A stretch of DNA of 64,000 nt from assembly GCA_963718295.1 (NCBI GenBank), contig CAVQYV010000006.1:310001-374000 (forward strand), in the 5' to 3' direction. The number at the start of each line of letters is the position of its first letter. Position 1 is the stretch's first letter. This document shows, in pieces, positions 55,724 to 61,280 of this stretch. The position numbers and the translations under genes are program-made. Under the pieces are notes generated by a model. It saw only the letters and a list, made by a program, of their open reading frames with translations, did no database searches and was not told where the DNA came from. The DNA comes from CAVQYV01 sp963718295 [NCBI: uncultured Methylomirabilota bacterium]. GTDB lineage: Bacteria; Methylomirabilota; Methylomirabilia; CAVQYV01.

Positions 55724-56752
55724 TCAGGCCCGGCCAGCCTGCAGCAGCGTCCTCGCATTCTCGCAGGGCACATCGGGAGGAATGTCACAGCCGGTCATCA
55801 GGATGTAGCCATCGCCGGGCGACGCAGCCTCGATGCACTTTCTCGCCTCCTCATCCACCTGCGCCTCTTTCCCCCGCAACATGATCTCCACCGGATCGAC
55901 ATTCCCCGCCAAGCAGGTTTTCCCTTGCAGGGTCACTCTGGCGGAGGCCAGGTCCACCTTATGATCCAGGCTGAAGCAGTGAATCCCCGATCCGGCCACC
56001 AGATCCAGGCGGTCGGCGGTGTTGCCGCAGATGTGAAGAAAGAGGTAGGCCTCCCTTTCCCGAATCCATTGTGCGATCTGGCTGATGCCCGGCAGGGCGA
56101 ATTCCTGGAAGGTTTTCCGGGAGATGAGGTCTCCGGAGGCGGTCGGATCGGCCAGGGCCGCACCATCCACTACCCCCTCTTCCAGGAGCGGCTCCAGGAA
56201 GAGGCAGATCGCCTCACGTGAGACCTCCAGGAGCTCCTGGACCCGATCCGGGGAATCGAGGAGCGCCATCATGAGCTGATTCACTCCCAGGAGCTGCCCA
56301 GCGAAGGTCAGGGGGCCGTTGGCCACGATGGCCAAGAAGGCCCTGCCCTCCAGGGAGCGCTTGAGGGATGCCGCTGCCGTCCTTACCGCCCTCAGGATCG
56401 AATCTCGATGGATTTTCTCCAGGGGCAGATCTTTTGCCCCTGCCAGGTCTTTCAGCACGGGGCCTTCCAGCTTGGGGGCGCTGATGCCCTCGAATCGCAG
56501 CTTGCCGCCCAGTGCCCCATAGAGGGCGTTGGGATAGCCGGACCCCACAAATACGATATCGAAGGGAATCCGCTCATGAGCCATCTGGAGCGCCTTCGCC
56601 ATCTGTTCCCCATCCCGGCTCAGATCGAGCAGGGTGGTGCCCATCATGCGGGCAGTCCACATCCCCCCTCCCCAGACCGAGACCGGGATCCGGGGCGGCC
56701 TCCCCAAGGAGAGGGCCTCTAACACCACCCCTTTAGAATCCCTCGAGCCCAT
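55724..56752 (-). CDS. Uroporphyrinogen decarboxylase-fold protein (MtaA-like), linked to hgc operon
   Basis: 342 residues from the ATG at 56752 (GGGAGG eight bases ahead), a GTG three codons upstream being an alternative. The zinc-site pattern of corrinoid methyltransferases is complete: HICGNTADRL in the second half and TGCDIPPDVPCENA near the end (HxC...C), unlike the two other URO-D-fold proteins in the window. It lies downstream of hgcAB in the same direction and overlaps the DUF169 gene by 20 bases. A methyl-transfer role is plausible; HemE is excluded by the missing N-terminal motif. Confidence 0.84.
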   Translation of the reverse strand: MGSRDSKGVVLEALSLGRPPRIPVSVWGGGMWTARMMGTTLLDLSRDGEQMAKALQMAHERIPFDIVFVGSGYPNALYGALGGKLRFEGISAPKLEGPVLKDLAGAKDLPLEKIHRDSILRAVRTAAASLKRSLEGRAFLAIVANGPLTFAGQLLGVNQLMMALLDSPDRVQELLEVSREAICLFLEPLLEEGVVDGAALADPTASGDLISRKTFQEFALPGISQIAQWIREREAYLFLHICGNTADRLDLVAGSGIHCFSLDHKVDLASARVTLQGKTCLAGNVDPVEIMLRGKEAQVDEEARKCIEAASPGDGYILMTGCDIPPDVPCENARTLLQAGRA

Positions 56753-57485
56753 CACCCTCACCTCCCTTGTGCTCGCTACTCATGTATTTGCGGAACTCCG
56801 GAGGTATCTCGATCGGGGCGGTCCCGGCCCCGCAGCAGGGGACGCTCTCGATCAGGTTATGCATCCTGGGGAAGGGGACCGTTACCAAGAGCTCATCCTT
56901 TGCGAAGCGGCGCATCCTTCGGGCGGTGTAATCGAAAAGGCTCAGATTGATCTCCCCGGAGACCAGAGGATAGGCAATTGTGGTGTAACAGGCTGCACCC
57001 ATCAGCTGCATCTTCGGGGGGATGCCATCCATGTAAGTTGCCAGGGTGAGAAGACGGCAGGCCTGCTCCGGGTTGACCAGGAAGATGACCAGATCTGGCC
57101 TCTGCTCCGCTGCTTCGAGCGGACAAATGATGACATGCTCAGCCAATCCCGTGGGAGGGGGAAGGGTGAGGGATCGCATTCGGTGCAATGCCGCCAAAGA
57201 ACAAAATAGTTTTTCCCCCTGAACCAGGAACTTCTTGAGGGCCACATCCGCCTCTCCGCTGGGGCGGGGACCCAGGCCCAGATGAGAAGTCCCTCCGCTG
57301 CAGGCGGAGTTGCCCCGGTTGAGGCTCAGGATTTCTCCATCCCGAGCCCGCTGCAAAGCGGCACAGACCCAGCAGCGCCCCTCTGCCCCCCGGGGATCCG
57401 CCTCCAGGGAGTAGGTGACGGCAATGGGGCTCCCCCGCAGTCCCAAAACCGGCTGGAGCTTCTCCGCATATTCCTTCCATTCCAT
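56733..57485 (-). CDS. DUF169 protein
   Basis: 250 residues from the ATG at 57485, chosen because AAGGAGG lies about eight bases ahead. The reading frame is open far upstream, but that part overlaps other genes. The protein begins EWKEYAEKLQPVLGLRGSPIAVTY and has conserved Cys residues (CWVCAALQRA, CSGGTSHLGLG, VPCCGAG), as DUF169 members do. These are suspected metal- or cofactor-binding proteins of anaerobes. Function unknown. Confidence 0.83.
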   Translation of the reverse strand: MEWKEYAEKLQPVLGLRGSPIAVTYSLEADPRGAEGRCWVCAALQRARDGEILSLNRGNSACSGGTSHLGLGPRPSGEADVALKKFLVQGEKLFCSLAALHRMRSLTLPPPTGLAEHVIICPLEAAEQRPDLVIFLVNPEQACRLLTLATYMDGIPPKMQLMGAACYTTIAYPLVSGEINLSLFDYTARRMRRFAKDELLVTVPFPRMHNLIESVPCCGAGTAPIEIPPEFRKYMSSEHKGGEGDGLEGF

Positions 57486-57553
57486 ACTGGAACCTCCTTC
57501 CGTTTCGATCTTCCCTACCTGTTTTCGTGCCCCCGGCCTTTGGCTGTCCCGCC

Positions 57554-58075
57554 TCAATCCGGGACCCTGGGGACGAGAAAGGATACCCGGCTGCGATACT
57601 CCAAATACTCCTGTCCAAAGCGGCGGATGAGGTGAGGCTCTTCGATCTTTTTGAGATAAAGGATGGCCAGGGCACAGAGGAGGGGATACAAGAGCATGAG
57701 GGCCGAGAGGCTGCGAGCGATGAAGAGAATGCCGAGGAGGTTCAGGAGGAACCCAAGGGCCATGGGATTGCGGGTATAAGCGAAGGGGCCGTCGATGACG
57801 ATCTTTTGGGTGGGCGGCAGGAGGGGATAGCCAAAGGCCTCCTGGGGGTGCCCCTTGCCTAAGCGAACCAGGATCTGCCAGGCTGCCTTGACAAAGGAGA
57901 GGCCGGCCAGCATCAGGGCGACTCCCAGAACGTAGGCAACGTATCTCCACGGAAGGAGAGGCCAGTGAAACAGTCGATCCAGGAGGCGTCCTGCAAAAAT
58001 GGTCATCCCCGGGGCCAAAAAGAGGAAAAGGAAGATAGAGCCGGAATAGACGAATATCACCTTCAGCCGCGACAT
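57554..58075 (-). CDS. Isoprenylcysteine carboxyl methyltransferase-like membrane protein
   Basis: 173 residues from the Met at 58075 (the frame upstream overlaps hgcB). Four to five membrane helices, then the ICMT/PEMT-type SAM site: GPFAYTRNPMALGFLLNLLG, followed by KKIEEPHLIRRFGQEYLEYR. In bacteria such proteins methylate small or lipid substrates. It lies 91 bases downstream of hgcB on the same strand; whether it is tied to mercury methylation is open. Confidence 0.8.
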   Translation of the reverse strand: MSRLKVIFVYSGSIFLFLFLAPGMTIFAGRLLDRLFHWPLLPWRYVAYVLGVALMLAGLSFVKAAWQILVRLGKGHPQEAFGYPLLPPTQKIVIDGPFAYTRNPMALGFLLNLLGILFIARSLSALMLLYPLLCALAILYLKKIEEPHLIRRFGQEYLEYRSRVSFLVPRVPD

Positions 58076-58166
58076 GGGAGAAAAATAGCATGCCGCCGAT
58101 TTCCTCGTAAAGAGAAAATCTTCCCCATTGGAGCTCTCCTTAAGGGGATCACCCCGTCGTCTCCTT

Positions 58167-58499
58167 TCAGTGGTCATCTCTTACATCATTGTCCACAGAG
58201 CACGAACACCCCATCCCCGCCGAATCCACAGCGCAGCAGGCGCTTTTCCGCTTCAGCTTGGAGTTGAGCACCGCCACGGCGCAGCCCACTCCTGCCTGCA
58301 CGCTCACGGCCCCGGCCGGGCAATTTCTCGCACAGGCTCCACACTCCATGCAGGCATCCCGGTTCGCGATCTCAGCCGTGCCGTTCGTCATGGTCAAAAC
58401 CGCCTGGGGGCAAACGAGCAGGCACATCCCACAGCCGGTACATTTAGCTTGATCGAGTTCCAAGGTGACGACATCCTTGAGATAGGTCATCTCTCCCAT
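58167..58499 (-). CDS. hgcB: Mercury methylation ferredoxin HgcB
   Basis: A 110-residue 2x[4Fe-4S] ferredoxin that reduces the corrinoid of HgcA. Ligands are Cys20, 23, 26, 30 (CTGCGMCLLVCP) and Cys50, 53, 56, 60 (CMECGACARNCP). The HgcB-specific cysteine follows at Cys73 (VQAGVGCAVAVLN), and the C-terminal vicinal pair is Cys88-Cys89, with extra cysteines at 98 and 100. It begins three bases after the hgcA stop. These features separate it from ordinary ferredoxins. Confidence 0.95.
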   Translation of the reverse strand: MGEMTYLKDVVTLELDQAKCTGCGMCLLVCPQAVLTMTNGTAEIANRDACMECGACARNCPAGAVSVQAGVGCAVAVLNSKLKRKSACCAVDSAGMGCSCSVDNDVRDDH

Positions 58500-58502
58500 G
58501 AT

Positions 58503-59573
58503 TCAAACTCCTCCCGCGATGAATTGCGAACCGATCCAGAGAACGAAACCCAAGATTCCCGCACCAATCTCCAACGGCAAAGCCCAGCGCATCTCTTTCC
58601 TGACTCCCGAGAGGGAGGTGTAAGTCGATGCTCCTGTGAAATTCATCGCCAGAAAAGCGGAGAGCGCAGGGATGAGAAGAAACCAGCCCAATGTCTCCAG
58701 ACGCCCTCCCACTGCGGTCCAGTTTCCCCAAGACGAAGAGAAGAGCGCCAGAGCGGCCACAAACCCCACGATCGTGCCTTTGAGCGAAAAGGCCCTACCG
58801 GGCACCCAGGGCAAGAGCAGGGGAGTCAAAACGGCACCGGAAAAAATAGCCACCAGCATCGCCAGAACAGAGGAGAGGCCGTGGTGGGCCGCCTGCGTCC
58901 AACCCTCTCCGGCCCTGCCCAGAAAGGCCAGGAGGAAGAGGATAGGAAGAACTACGAGAGTAGGTCTCAACGCTCCCACGATCTCCATCGGGACGAGAAC
59001 CAGGCGCTCCGCGAGCGTGAAAGTCTTGAGCCGCATCTTGGGGGTCGCTTTCAGTCCATTTTCAAGGAAGGCCGGCAAGTCCTTGGCGCGGATGGGCCCG
59101 TAGATCACCCTGAAACCAGACAACTTTGTGACGAGGTGCGCCGCAACTCCCGGACCCGATAGCTGGGGAAGGATCAATTCCCGGTGGGAGACGATCTGGT
59201 CCAACCCGGTGGATTGGATTCGGCTGACAAGCTCCTTGCTTCCGAAGGTCCCTTTGCCAGAGGCGCACCAGACATTGACACCCTTCGTATCCAGGACCAG
59301 GATCCAGGCGTCCCTGCCCGGCAGTGCTTCCCGCAGCTTGTCGAAGCTCATCTTGTAATTGGCGGTTACGAGGACGGGAGACTTTTCGCCCGGCTTTCCC
59401 AGTGCGTAGAGGCCAGGCTCCACGGTGTAATTCATCCTGCCTACTCCCCAGCGAGCCTTGAAGGTTCCGAGGCGGTCCGCCCAGGTCAACGAGGAGGAAA
59501 CCTGAGGCAGAAGGCCCACTCGGGTCGGGATCGAACCCATTACAAAGGGTTGTTTGATATGAGGAAGGCTCAA
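58503..59573 (-). CDS. hgcA: Mercury methylation corrinoid protein HgcA
   Basis: HgcA transfers a methyl group from its corrinoid to Hg(II), giving methylmercury. The protein is 356 residues from the TTG at 59573. It has the diagnostic cap-helix motif NVWCASGKGTF (Asn100 to Phe110; Cys103 is the cobalt-side ligand), preceded by FKARWGVGR and VEPGLYALGKP. A C-terminal membrane domain of about five helices starts near residue 205. AAAGGAG lies about eight bases before the TTG. The same reading frame continues upstream across one UGA (59592-59594) into a Cys-rich 21-codon frame with its own ribosome site, so a longer protein made by UGA decoding is possible. Confidence 0.96.
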   Translation of the reverse strand: MSLPHIKQPFVMGSIPTRVGLLPQVSSSLTWADRLGTFKARWGVGRMNYTVEPGLYALGKPGEKSPVLVTANYKMSFDKLREALPGRDAWILVLDTKGVNVWCASGKGTFGSKELVSRIQSTGLDQIVSHRELILPQLSGPGVAAHLVTKLSGFRVIYGPIRAKDLPAFLENGLKATPKMRLKTFTLAERLVLVPMEIVGALRPTLVVLPILFLLAFLGRAGEGWTQAAHHGLSSVLAMLVAIFSGAVLTPLLLPWVPGRAFSLKGTIVGFVAALALFSSSWGNWTAVGGRLETLGWFLLIPALSAFLAMNFTGASTYTSLSGVRKEMRWALPLEIGAGILGFVLWIGSQFIAGGV

Positions 59574-59585
59574 CCGAGCCTCTCC
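59562..59585 (-). promoter_or_regulatory. Hairpin right after the in-frame UGA of hgcA (possible SECIS)
   Basis: Reading the minus strand after the UGA, 16 bases separate it from a GGTT loop (59575-59572). The loop closes the 7-pair stem GAGGCTC/GAGCCTT, counting one G-U pair at its base, and the stem can extend past one mismatch by two more pairs. Loop position and its leading G's fall within the published description of bacterial SECIS elements as I recall it (apical loop 16-37 bases from the UGA, G in its first two bases). The stem also covers part of the hgcA ribosome site and its TTG, so a plain translational-control role is equally open. Confidence 0.45.
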
Positions 59586-59591
59586 TTTGAG

Positions 59592-59657
59592 TCAGCCGCA
59601 TCCCGACTGGGTAAGGGCCTTCCGCTCCCCGTCGAGGCAGCACCCTGTTTCATTCAT
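59592..59657 (-). CDS. 21-codon Cys-rich reading frame in phase with hgcA
   Basis: It encodes MNETGCCLDGERKALTQSGC plus a final Gly, then UGA. AAGGAG stands eight bases before the ATG, a good ribosome site. It is in the same frame as hgcA, and only six sense codons lie between the UGA and the TTG assigned to hgcA. Three cysteines in 21 residues (Cys6, Cys7, Cys20) suggest metal or thiol chemistry. It may be a leader peptide, or the true N-terminus of HgcA if the UGA is read as selenocysteine (giving Cys-Gly-Sec), or a mutation-split N-terminus. Confidence 0.6.
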   Translation of the reverse strand: MNETGCCLDGERKALTQSGCG

Positions 59658-59711
59658 GTTCGCATCTCCTTGGCTTGAAGGTTTCTCGAGTAGTCTTGCC
59701 GGAACGGAGGC

Positions 59712-59996
59712 TCAATCGGTAGCCATCTCTTTCATCATGGGACCCAGAAAACCCTTCACCTGCTCGGCAATATGTTCTGCTTTGATCAGATAAAGGCAGC
59801 AAATCTCTCCTCCCTTGTCCCAACTCACGACCGCCAACTTATCCCCGGCTCGGATATTCGCCTTTTCTCTCAGTTCTTTCGGCAGGACCATCTGCCCTCG
59901 CTCATCGACGCTGACGATCGACTCGACCTTACAGCAGGTCCCCCCTTCCTTGTCCACAGGGGAGCAGGAGACCCTCTTTTGATTTATCCTGGACAT
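59712..59996 (-). CDS. AbrB/SpoVT-type HgcAB-associated protein
   Basis: 94 residues from the ATG at 59996 (GGAGGTG ahead). The AbrB-type swapped-hairpin DNA-binding domain is VDERGQMVLPKELREKANIR (residues 30-49) followed by AGDKLAVVSWD. Cysteines stand at 11, 21-22 and 66-67, unusual for the fold and suggestive of metal binding. I recall that small AbrB-like proteins are annotated as HgcAB-associated in other genomes. It is the first gene of the locus and probably autoregulates it through the repeats at the promoter. Confidence 0.85.
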   Translation of the reverse strand: MSRINQKRVSCSPVDKEGGTCCKVESIVSVDERGQMVLPKELREKANIRAGDKLAVVSWDKGGEICCLYLIKAEHIAEQVKGFLGPMMKEMATD

Positions 59997-60022
59997 CGAT
60001 TCACCTCCCATTGCAGTGTCGT

Positions 60023-61030: not shown

Positions 61031-61280
61031 ATGTCCAAATGCATGTACTGCGAGTCAAGTAGCTTTGGGCCTTGCAGCAACAGTCCACATCAGAAGCATG
61101 AGCACAGCGGTATGGATGAAAAGAAAGTGTGTCTTCTGCGGTTCATCCAGCTACGGCTCTTGTAGCAACAGCCCGTTTAAAAAGCACAAACATGGCAGCG
61201 GAAACTATAAATGCGTTTATTGCGGGTCACGCAGCACTGGCTCATGTAACCATAGCCCTCATGGAAAGCACGAAAAGTAA
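61031..61280 (+). pseudogene. Cys/His repeat (zinc-knuckle-like) protein, interrupted by a frameshift
   Basis: Three tandem units of the form KCxxCxSSSxGxCSNSPxxKHxH are encoded: KCMYCESSSFGPCSNSPHQK first, then KCVFCGSSSYGSCSNSPFKK and KCVYCGSRSTGSCNHSPHGK. The first unit starts at the ATG at 61031 (AAAGGAGAG ahead). Units two and three are in the +1-shifted frame, the change falling at AAGAAAGTGTGTC near 61120-61132. The first frame ends at TAG 61163-61165. Joined, the protein would be about 82 residues with many potential zinc ligands. I do not recognise a named function. Confidence 0.75.

What the first reader, a model, noticed from the sequence alone, without database searches (positions are those of the whole stretch)
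59562..59657. In-frame UGA plus hairpin joins a Cys-rich 21-codon frame to hgcA: possible selenocysteine or leader control
A frame with its own ribosome site encodes a peptide with CC and CG, ends at UGA, and is in phase with hgcA only six codons upstream of the TTG. The UGA is followed after 16 bases by a GGUU-capped stem, a spacing and loop that fit bacterial SECIS rules as I know them. Read through, HgcA would gain an N-terminus containing Cys-Gly-Sec. The alternative is a leader peptide whose translation opens the hairpin over the hgcA ribosome site. Either would be, to my knowledge, undescribed for hgcA.
Basis: partly seen in the sequence, partly recalled or inferred. Interest (0 to 1): 0.88.

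Follow-up and report, generated by a model that had tools for sequence, protein, structure and literature searches.

The report
Selenocysteine-containing HgcA, a predicted selenoprotein
The apparent stop codon near the start of this mercury-methylation gene is most likely read as selenocysteine, the rare 21st amino acid; this was already predicted for the gene family, so the window holds a new and slightly unusual member rather than a new phenomenon.

Summary
A 21-codon Cys-rich frame with its own ribosome site (ATG 59657) ends at UGA (59594-59592), in phase with hgcA, followed after 16 nt by a GGUU-capped hairpin (59586-59562). The frame is the N-terminus of HgcA, and the UGA is most likely selenocysteine (Sec22).

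Of the 80 best HgcA loci in one genome scan, 74 could be classified: 39 carry an in-frame UGA at this place (no UAA/UAG), 22 a Cys within one codon of it (9 exactly there), 13 neither. The hairpin core with a loop G is present in 36 of 40 UGA genes (window included) and 0 of 35 others; 6 of 7 pairs show compensatory changes. All 39 UGA genomes match SelB and/or tRNA-Sec over cut-off, but so do most non-UGA genomes tested. The window's own genome is not held, so its Sec machinery is untested.

This is not new in kind: a 2026 review lists HgcA as a predicted selenoprotein ("CU" motif), citing Haft & Gwadz 2023, which I could not read. New here: a divergent member with Cys-Gly-Sec, its UGA one codon nearer the hairpin (16 not 19 nt), and covariation evidence for the SECIS. 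The leader-peptide alternative is not supported; an internal UUG start remains possible.

The parts
58503..59657 (-). hgcA read through UGA: 384 residues plus stop, Sec at position 22
   Evidence: NF040863 HgcA_corrinoid 467.3 bits (cut-off 275) on the read-through translation (that tool shows 385 letters because the final stop is also TGA); tblastn matches of several relatives reach query residue 1, upstream of the UGA
59666..59671 (-). AAGGAG ribosome-binding site, 8 nt before ATG 59657
   Evidence: sequence; anti-SD duplex -8.5 kcal/mol
59592..59594 (-). UGA, predicted selenocysteine codon (Sec22), preceded by Cys20-Gly21
   Evidence: in-frame UGA 14-16 codons before Q(P/S)FV in 39 of 74 classified loci; Cys within one codon of that place in 22
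59562..59586 (-). bSECIS-like hairpin, 10 bp with a 1-nt bulge, loop GGUU 59575-59572
   Evidence: core stem and loop G in 36 of 40 UGA genes and 0 of 35 others; both-side changes in 6 of 7 pairs
59571..59573 (-). UUG overlapping the SECIS loop, the start a mechanical ORF caller picks; possible weak internal start
   Evidence: SD-like AAAGGAG 59588-59582, -8.7 kcal/mol; 14 of 40 UGA genes have a start-like codon with SD <= -5 kcal/mol here
58167..58499 (-). hgcB, ferredoxin; GVGC (Cys form), not GVGU
   Evidence: NF040864 113.2 bits, cut-off 99
59712..60011 (-). hgcC, HgcAB-associated AbrB-like protein directly upstream
   Evidence: NF040962 129 bits, cut-off 70

Best explanation
hgcA starts at ATG 59657. 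The UGA at codon 22 is decoded as selenocysteine, directed by the hairpin that follows it (a bacterial SECIS bound by SelB with Sec-tRNA). The product is a full-length HgcA with a chalcogen-rich N-terminal tail (CC...Cys20-Gly-Sec22) before the corrinoid domain. Supported by comparison: UGA/Cys alternation, a conserved covarying hairpin, and Sec machinery in relatives. Inferred: actual Sec incorporation in this organism, and the chemistry. I think the Cys/Sec pair binds Hg(II) or methylmercury, or guards the redox state, much as HgcB cysteines are thought to.
For: Of 80 loci from one genome scan, 74 were classified: 39 UGA, 22 Cys, 13 neither; no UAA or UAG in the last 18 codons before Q(P/S)FV. 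Cys stands exactly at the commonest UGA position (-15) in 9 of the 22, 8 of them as a Cys-Cys pair in place of Cys-Sec. Hairpin at constant distance from that anchor: mean 5.98 of 7 pairs formed in 40 UGA genes, 3.27 in 22 Cys, 3.46 in 13 others; slid controls in UGA genes 2.05-4.28. Covariation: 87% of cells paired, 23 cells with both sides changed, score 0.300 against 0.190 in shuffles (0 of 500 as high) and at most 0.176 when slid by 1-3 columns. Core stem plus loop G in 36 of 40 against 0 of 35. SelB over cut-off in 36 of 39 UGA genomes; tRNA-Sec over cut-off in 36 of 39, one of them (G005) borderline at 47.0 bits; each genome without one has the other. The best upstream start has SD <= -5 kcal/mol in 32 of 40, best start chosen by SD. 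In the HgcA tree the window lies among UGA forms, nearest L002, 73%.
Against: No genome is held for the window, so its selA, selB, selC and selD are untested. Sec machinery does not discriminate: 33 of 35 non-UGA genomes also have SelB over cut-off. The window breaks the usual Cys-Sec pair (Cys-Gly-Sec) and has the shortest spacing of the bSECIS model, 16 nt. In 10 of the 22 Cys forms the Cys is only at -16, where UGA genes usually have the Cys of Cys-Sec, so the exact Sec/Cys match rests on fewer genes. Relatives are not independent: only 2 independent UGA/non-UGA contrasts lie on well-supported branches; the hairpin goes the same way in 1.9 of them on average, never the other way, sign test not significant. 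4 of 40 UGA genes (L047, L062, L065, L078) miss the core stem at the fixed place. The window's place in the tree rests on no starred branch. A strong SD plus UUG in the loop would also permit internal initiation.
Confidence: 0.92

Rival explanations
1. Leader peptide: UGA is a true stop, and translation of the 21-codon leader opens the hairpin over an internal hgcA ribosome site so that hgcA starts at UUG 59573.
For: AAAGGAG 8 nt before UUG, -8.7 kcal/mol, lies mostly inside the hairpin.
Against: All 40 in-frame stops at the site are UGA; a leader could end at any stop. The 22 Cys forms have no stop there. 13 of 40 UGA genes have no ATG, GTG or TTG at the loop position.
Confidence: 0.03
2. Dual output: Sec-HgcA when selenium is available, plus a short HgcA initiated at the UUG/GUG in the SECIS loop.
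For: 27 of 40 UGA genes have GUG or UUG at the loop; SD <= -5 kcal/mol before it in 20 of 40 against 21% of 600 random hgcA codons. Three of 75 sequences (L028, L045, L050) have no Cys or Sec in the 25 codons before the anchor, so the motif seems dispensable.
Against: Only 14 of 40 combine a start codon with SD <= -5; the loop sequence and AGG-rich stem of the SECIS can give both features by themselves.
Confidence: 0.05
3. Nonsense mutation or sequencing error; the N-terminus is dead or the gene is a pseudogene.
For: None beyond the UGA.
Against: UGA stands at this place in 39 other hgcA loci, most with the hairpin; the rest of the gene is intact.
Confidence: 0.005

Closest known systems
HgcA selenoproteins (NF040863, CU motif), Haft & Gwadz 2023, J Bacteriol 205:e00259-22, as listed in the review PMC13188914
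   Same: Same protein family, one Sec in a Cys/Sec motif
   Different: The window has Cys-Gly-Sec instead of Cys-Sec and 16 nt instead of 19 nt to the SECIS loop. The original paper is not held, so whether it covers CxU forms or the SECIS is unknown to me.
Bacterial SECIS consensus (bSECIS model as given in PMC13188914)
   Same: 4-nt loop with G first, 10-bp stem, 16 nt from UGA, energy below -7.5 kcal/mol
   Different: No difference in the criteria; the spacing is at the lower limit.
HgcB selenoprotein form (GVGU, NF040864, listed in PMC13188914)
   Same: Partner gene, next to hgcA
   Different: The window's hgcB is GVGC; no GVGU among the 73 HgcB found by pattern in 81 sequences.

Membership tests
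HgcA (mercury methylation corrinoid protein) | Match to NF040863 over cut-off | tested here: met
   467.3 bits, cut-off 275
HgcA (mercury methylation corrinoid protein) | Cap-helix Cys motif N(V/I)WCA.GK (motif recalled; conserved Cys also in PMC7305189) | tested here: met
   NVWCASGKGTFG; 63 of 81 sequences have NVWCAAGKGTFG, 3 (window included) have this Ser form
HgcA (mercury methylation corrinoid protein) | hgcB next to hgcA | tested here: met
   NF040864 at 58499-58167, 3 nt after the hgcA stop
HgcA (mercury methylation corrinoid protein) | Methylates mercury | not testable with these tools
   needs an assay
Selenoprotein | In-frame UGA aligned with Cys in homologs | tested here: met
   39 UGA, 22 Cys within one codon (9 exactly at -15), 13 neither among 74 classified loci
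Selenoprotein | bSECIS: loop 3-9 nt, stem 4-16 bp, G in first two loop positions, 16-37 nt from UGA, energy <= -7.5 kcal/mol | tested here: met
   4 nt, 10 bp with one bulge, GGUU, 16 nt, -14.5 kcal/mol
Selenoprotein | Sec machinery in the same genome | not testable with these tools
   No genome held; in relatives with UGA, SelB and/or tRNA-Sec over cut-off in 39 of 39
Selenoprotein | Selenium in the purified protein | not testable with these tools
   needs 75Se labelling or mass spectrometry
CU-motif HgcA as listed in PMC13188914 | Cys directly before Sec | tested here: not met
   Cys20-Gly21-Sec22; Cys directly precedes UGA in 34 of 40 UGA genes

The most novel reading that the evidence does not exclude
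The SECIS of hgcA doubles as a start-site switch: its loop carries a UUG/GUG with an SD in or next to the stem, so cells make Sec-HgcA when SelB occupies the hairpin and a short, Sec-less HgcA when selenium is scarce, coupling methylmercury chemistry to selenium supply.
Probability: 0.05. Interest if true: 0.7.

Novelty: new member of a known kind. Interest (0 to 1): 0.36.

Why it matters
If Sec is incorporated, ORF calls that stop at UGA would cut such HgcA N-termini short, as happens in this window, and tests of such proteins without Sec would miss a likely metal-binding residue. It also links methylmercury production to selenium supply in a testable way. Because the family-level prediction is published, the gain here is independent support (covariation, Cys alternation, 39 further UGA loci) and a variant register.

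Tried and rejected
Leader peptide: rejected because all 40 stops at the site are UGA and the Cys forms have none. Reassigned code: rejected, TGA is the commonest stop of large ORFs in the window. Using SelB presence as a discriminator failed: 36 of 39 UGA genomes and 33 of 35 others are over cut-off. L051 (AGA at the UGA position, decayed hairpin, no SelB over cut-off) looked like a natural loss of Sec, but tRNA-Sec is present at 75.9 bits in that genome, so an assembly gap at selB is as likely. Selenium in HgcB: no GVGU in the 73 HgcB found by pattern (8 of 81 sequences gave no match to the pattern). Codon-position tests upstream of the UGA were too short to be informative. The viral contigs pattern scan and the plasmid tblastn found nothing. 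PDB: only distant corrinoid/iron-sulfur proteins. Rfam hits in the window at gathering score were only SRP RNA and tRNAs.

Literature: Haft & Gwadz 2023 and Haft & Tolstoy 2025 are not held; I saw only their titles in reference lists and what PMC13188914 and PMC11588087 say. PMC13188914 also cites Zhang & Gladyshev 2008 for HgcA, but the words CO dehydrogenase, acetyl-CoA synthase and gamma subunit do not occur in the held main text of that paper (PMC2398784, term search). PMC12013277 does not mention HgcA (term search). PMC10418091 passages only cite the 2023 paper.

Full report
What is there. On the minus strand, hgcC (60011-59712) is followed by AAGGAG, 8 nt, ATG 59657, a 21-codon frame MNETGCCLDGERKALTQSGCG, UGA 59594-59592, and without change of frame the body of hgcA. 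The read-through protein matches NF040863 HgcA at 467.3 bits (cut-off 275); hgcB follows at 58499-58167 and hgcC precedes (NF040864 and NF040962). A mechanical ORF caller starts hgcA at TTG 59573. The hairpin 59586-59562 has a GGUU loop 16 nt after the UGA; the fold of 49 nt gives -14.5 kcal/mol, z -2.18, 4 of 200 shuffles as stable. It meets every bSECIS criterion quoted in the review PMC13188914 (passages). Alone this is weak evidence: 16 of 400 synonymous recodings give as stable a bSECIS-like hairpin and 157 of 400 pass the energy limit.

Relatives. Matches of several reach query residue 1, upstream of the UGA. I placed the site by counting codons back from the conserved Q(P/S)FV. Of the 80, two are cut off by the contig end (L006, L031) and four could not be placed (L039, L070, L075, L076; L070 also shows a C-stop-P before AQLSLP but is broken by Ns). 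The other 74: 39 UGA, 22 Cys within one codon of the same position, 13 neither. With the window there are 40 UGA genes: UGA at codon -15 in 34, -14 in 4 (window included), -16 in 2; no UAA or UAG in the 18 codons before the anchor in any of the 75. Of the 22 Cys forms, 9 have Cys at -15 (8 of them a Cys-Cys pair at -16/-15, as in L022), 19 at -16 and 3 at -14. Of the 13 others, 10 have a Cys elsewhere in the 25 codons before the anchor and three have none (L028, L045, L050). Cys directly precedes UGA in 34 of 40 and Pro follows it in 25 of 40. The exceptions before UGA are L009, L020, L024 (Cys-Ser-Sec), L027, L052 and the window (Cys-Gly-Sec).

The hairpin. In most UGA genes a stem of the type AAGGCUC/GAGCCUU with loop AGGU or AGUU sits at a fixed distance from the anchor, encoding Lys-Ala-Gln-Val/Leu-Ser-Leu-Pro. 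Mean pairs formed of 7: UGA 5.98 (n 40), Cys 3.27 (22), neither 3.46 (13); slid controls in the UGA set 2.05 to 4.28. Six of seven pairs show changes on both sides, 23 cells in all, score 0.300 against 0.190 shuffled (0 of 500) and at most 0.176 slid; RNAalifold finds the 5-bp core. Core plus loop G: 36 of 40 UGA genes, 0 of 35 others (Fisher 3.6e-17, not corrected for kinship). With kinship, only 2 independent contrasts lie on starred branches (8 on all); the hairpin goes the same way in 1.9 of the 2 on average and never the other way, so the class contrast is consistent but not significant by that test. An unconstrained search for each gene's best hairpin separates the classes less sharply: best hairpin within the model's limits and with a loop G in 28 of 40 UGA, 4 of 22 Cys, 4 of 13 neither. 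Because the window's UGA lies one codon later than usual, its spacing to the loop at the fixed place is 16 nt; that figure is 19 in 34 of 40, 16 in 4 (L010, L032, L047, window) and 22 in 2. L047's own AGGU loop is at 19 by my reading of its sequence.

Sec machinery. SelB (TIGR00475) over cut-off: 36 of 39 UGA genomes; G020 has it in two neighbouring pieces, G018 and G034 have none over cut-off. tRNA-Sec (RF01852) over cut-off: 36 of 39, G005 only at 47.0 bits; G013, G016 and G019 are below. Every genome without one has the other. SelB is as common in the non-UGA genomes (33 of 35), so it permits the reading but does not prove it. Controls over cut-off: 2 of 14 genomes for SelB, 5 of 14 for tRNA-Sec. 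These genomes are mostly MAGs, so absences mean little. The window's genome is not held; its DnaX is at most 50% identical in the best match (380 residues) among 14 relatives' genomes, so it is a distant lineage. In the HgcA tree of 75 rows the window groups with UGA forms (L002 nearest, 73% identity), without starred support; the UGA label needs 8 changes against 25 in shuffles.

Mechanism. Translation starts at ATG 59657; the SECIS recodes UGA to Sec22. The tail with CC and Cys-Gly-Sec precedes the corrinoid domain. I infer that it binds Hg(II) or methylmercury or guards the redox state; PMC7305189 (passages) proposes such shuttling for HgcB cysteines. Since three relatives lack any Cys or Sec there, the role is probably accessory. 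An internal UUG with an SD (-8.7 kcal/mol) lies in the hairpin region. Across the family 27 of 40 UGA genes offer GUG/UUG at the loop, 20 of 40 have SD <= -5 and 14 of 40 both; random hgcA codons reach SD <= -5 in 21% of 600. The SECIS sequence itself may explain this enrichment.

Known or new. The review PMC13188914 lists HgcA (NF040863, motif CU, one Sec) citing Zhang & Gladyshev 2008 and Haft & Gwadz 2023, and HgcB (GVGU) citing the latter (passages). PMC11588087 says some hgcA and hgcB homologs may be selenoproteins, citing the 2023 paper (passages). In the held open-licence library exactly four papers hold both 'hgca' and 'selenoprotein': these two and two that by title are off topic (listing only). 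The wider searches listed 25 of 3,522, 20 of 120 and 15 of 47 papers; by their listings I saw no other paper on HgcA as a selenoprotein. The finding is therefore a new, divergent member of a published selenoprotein family, with independent comparative support.

Noticed in passing
58167-58499: The window's HgcB ends ...GCSCSVDNDVRDDH without the C-terminal Cys-Cys seen in many of the relatives listed, and its end overlaps the next gene (start 58177).
   Followed up: partly
55724-58177: Downstream of hgcB, close or overlapping genes on the same strand: a phospholipid/isoprenylcysteine-type methyltransferase (PF04191), a protein without NCBIfam hit (56733-57584), and an MtaA/CmuA-like methyltransferase (PF01208). 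None of the three matched any of the 80 hgcA loci at 1e-5 (flanks limited to 5 kb or the contig end).
   Followed up: partly
L051:5001-6029: HgcA with AGA where the UGA stands in relatives, a partly decayed hairpin and the peptide KAQLSLP retained; no SelB over cut-off in that genome but tRNA-Sec present. Possible recent loss of Sec.
   Followed up: partly
L026 and L028, near 5001: Non-UGA forms grouped with UGA form L009 in the tree, still with 6 of 7 hairpin pairs; may be relics of a SECIS.
   Followed up: no
L022:5001-6086: Cys-Cys form (TGT TGT) in a MAG titled Nitrospinota that keeps 6 of 7 hairpin pairs but has lost the top one; looks like a recent Sec to Cys change.
   Followed up: no
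61065-61280: Small protein with repeated CxxCGS...SC units, no Pfam or NCBIfam hit at 0.001.
   Followed up: no
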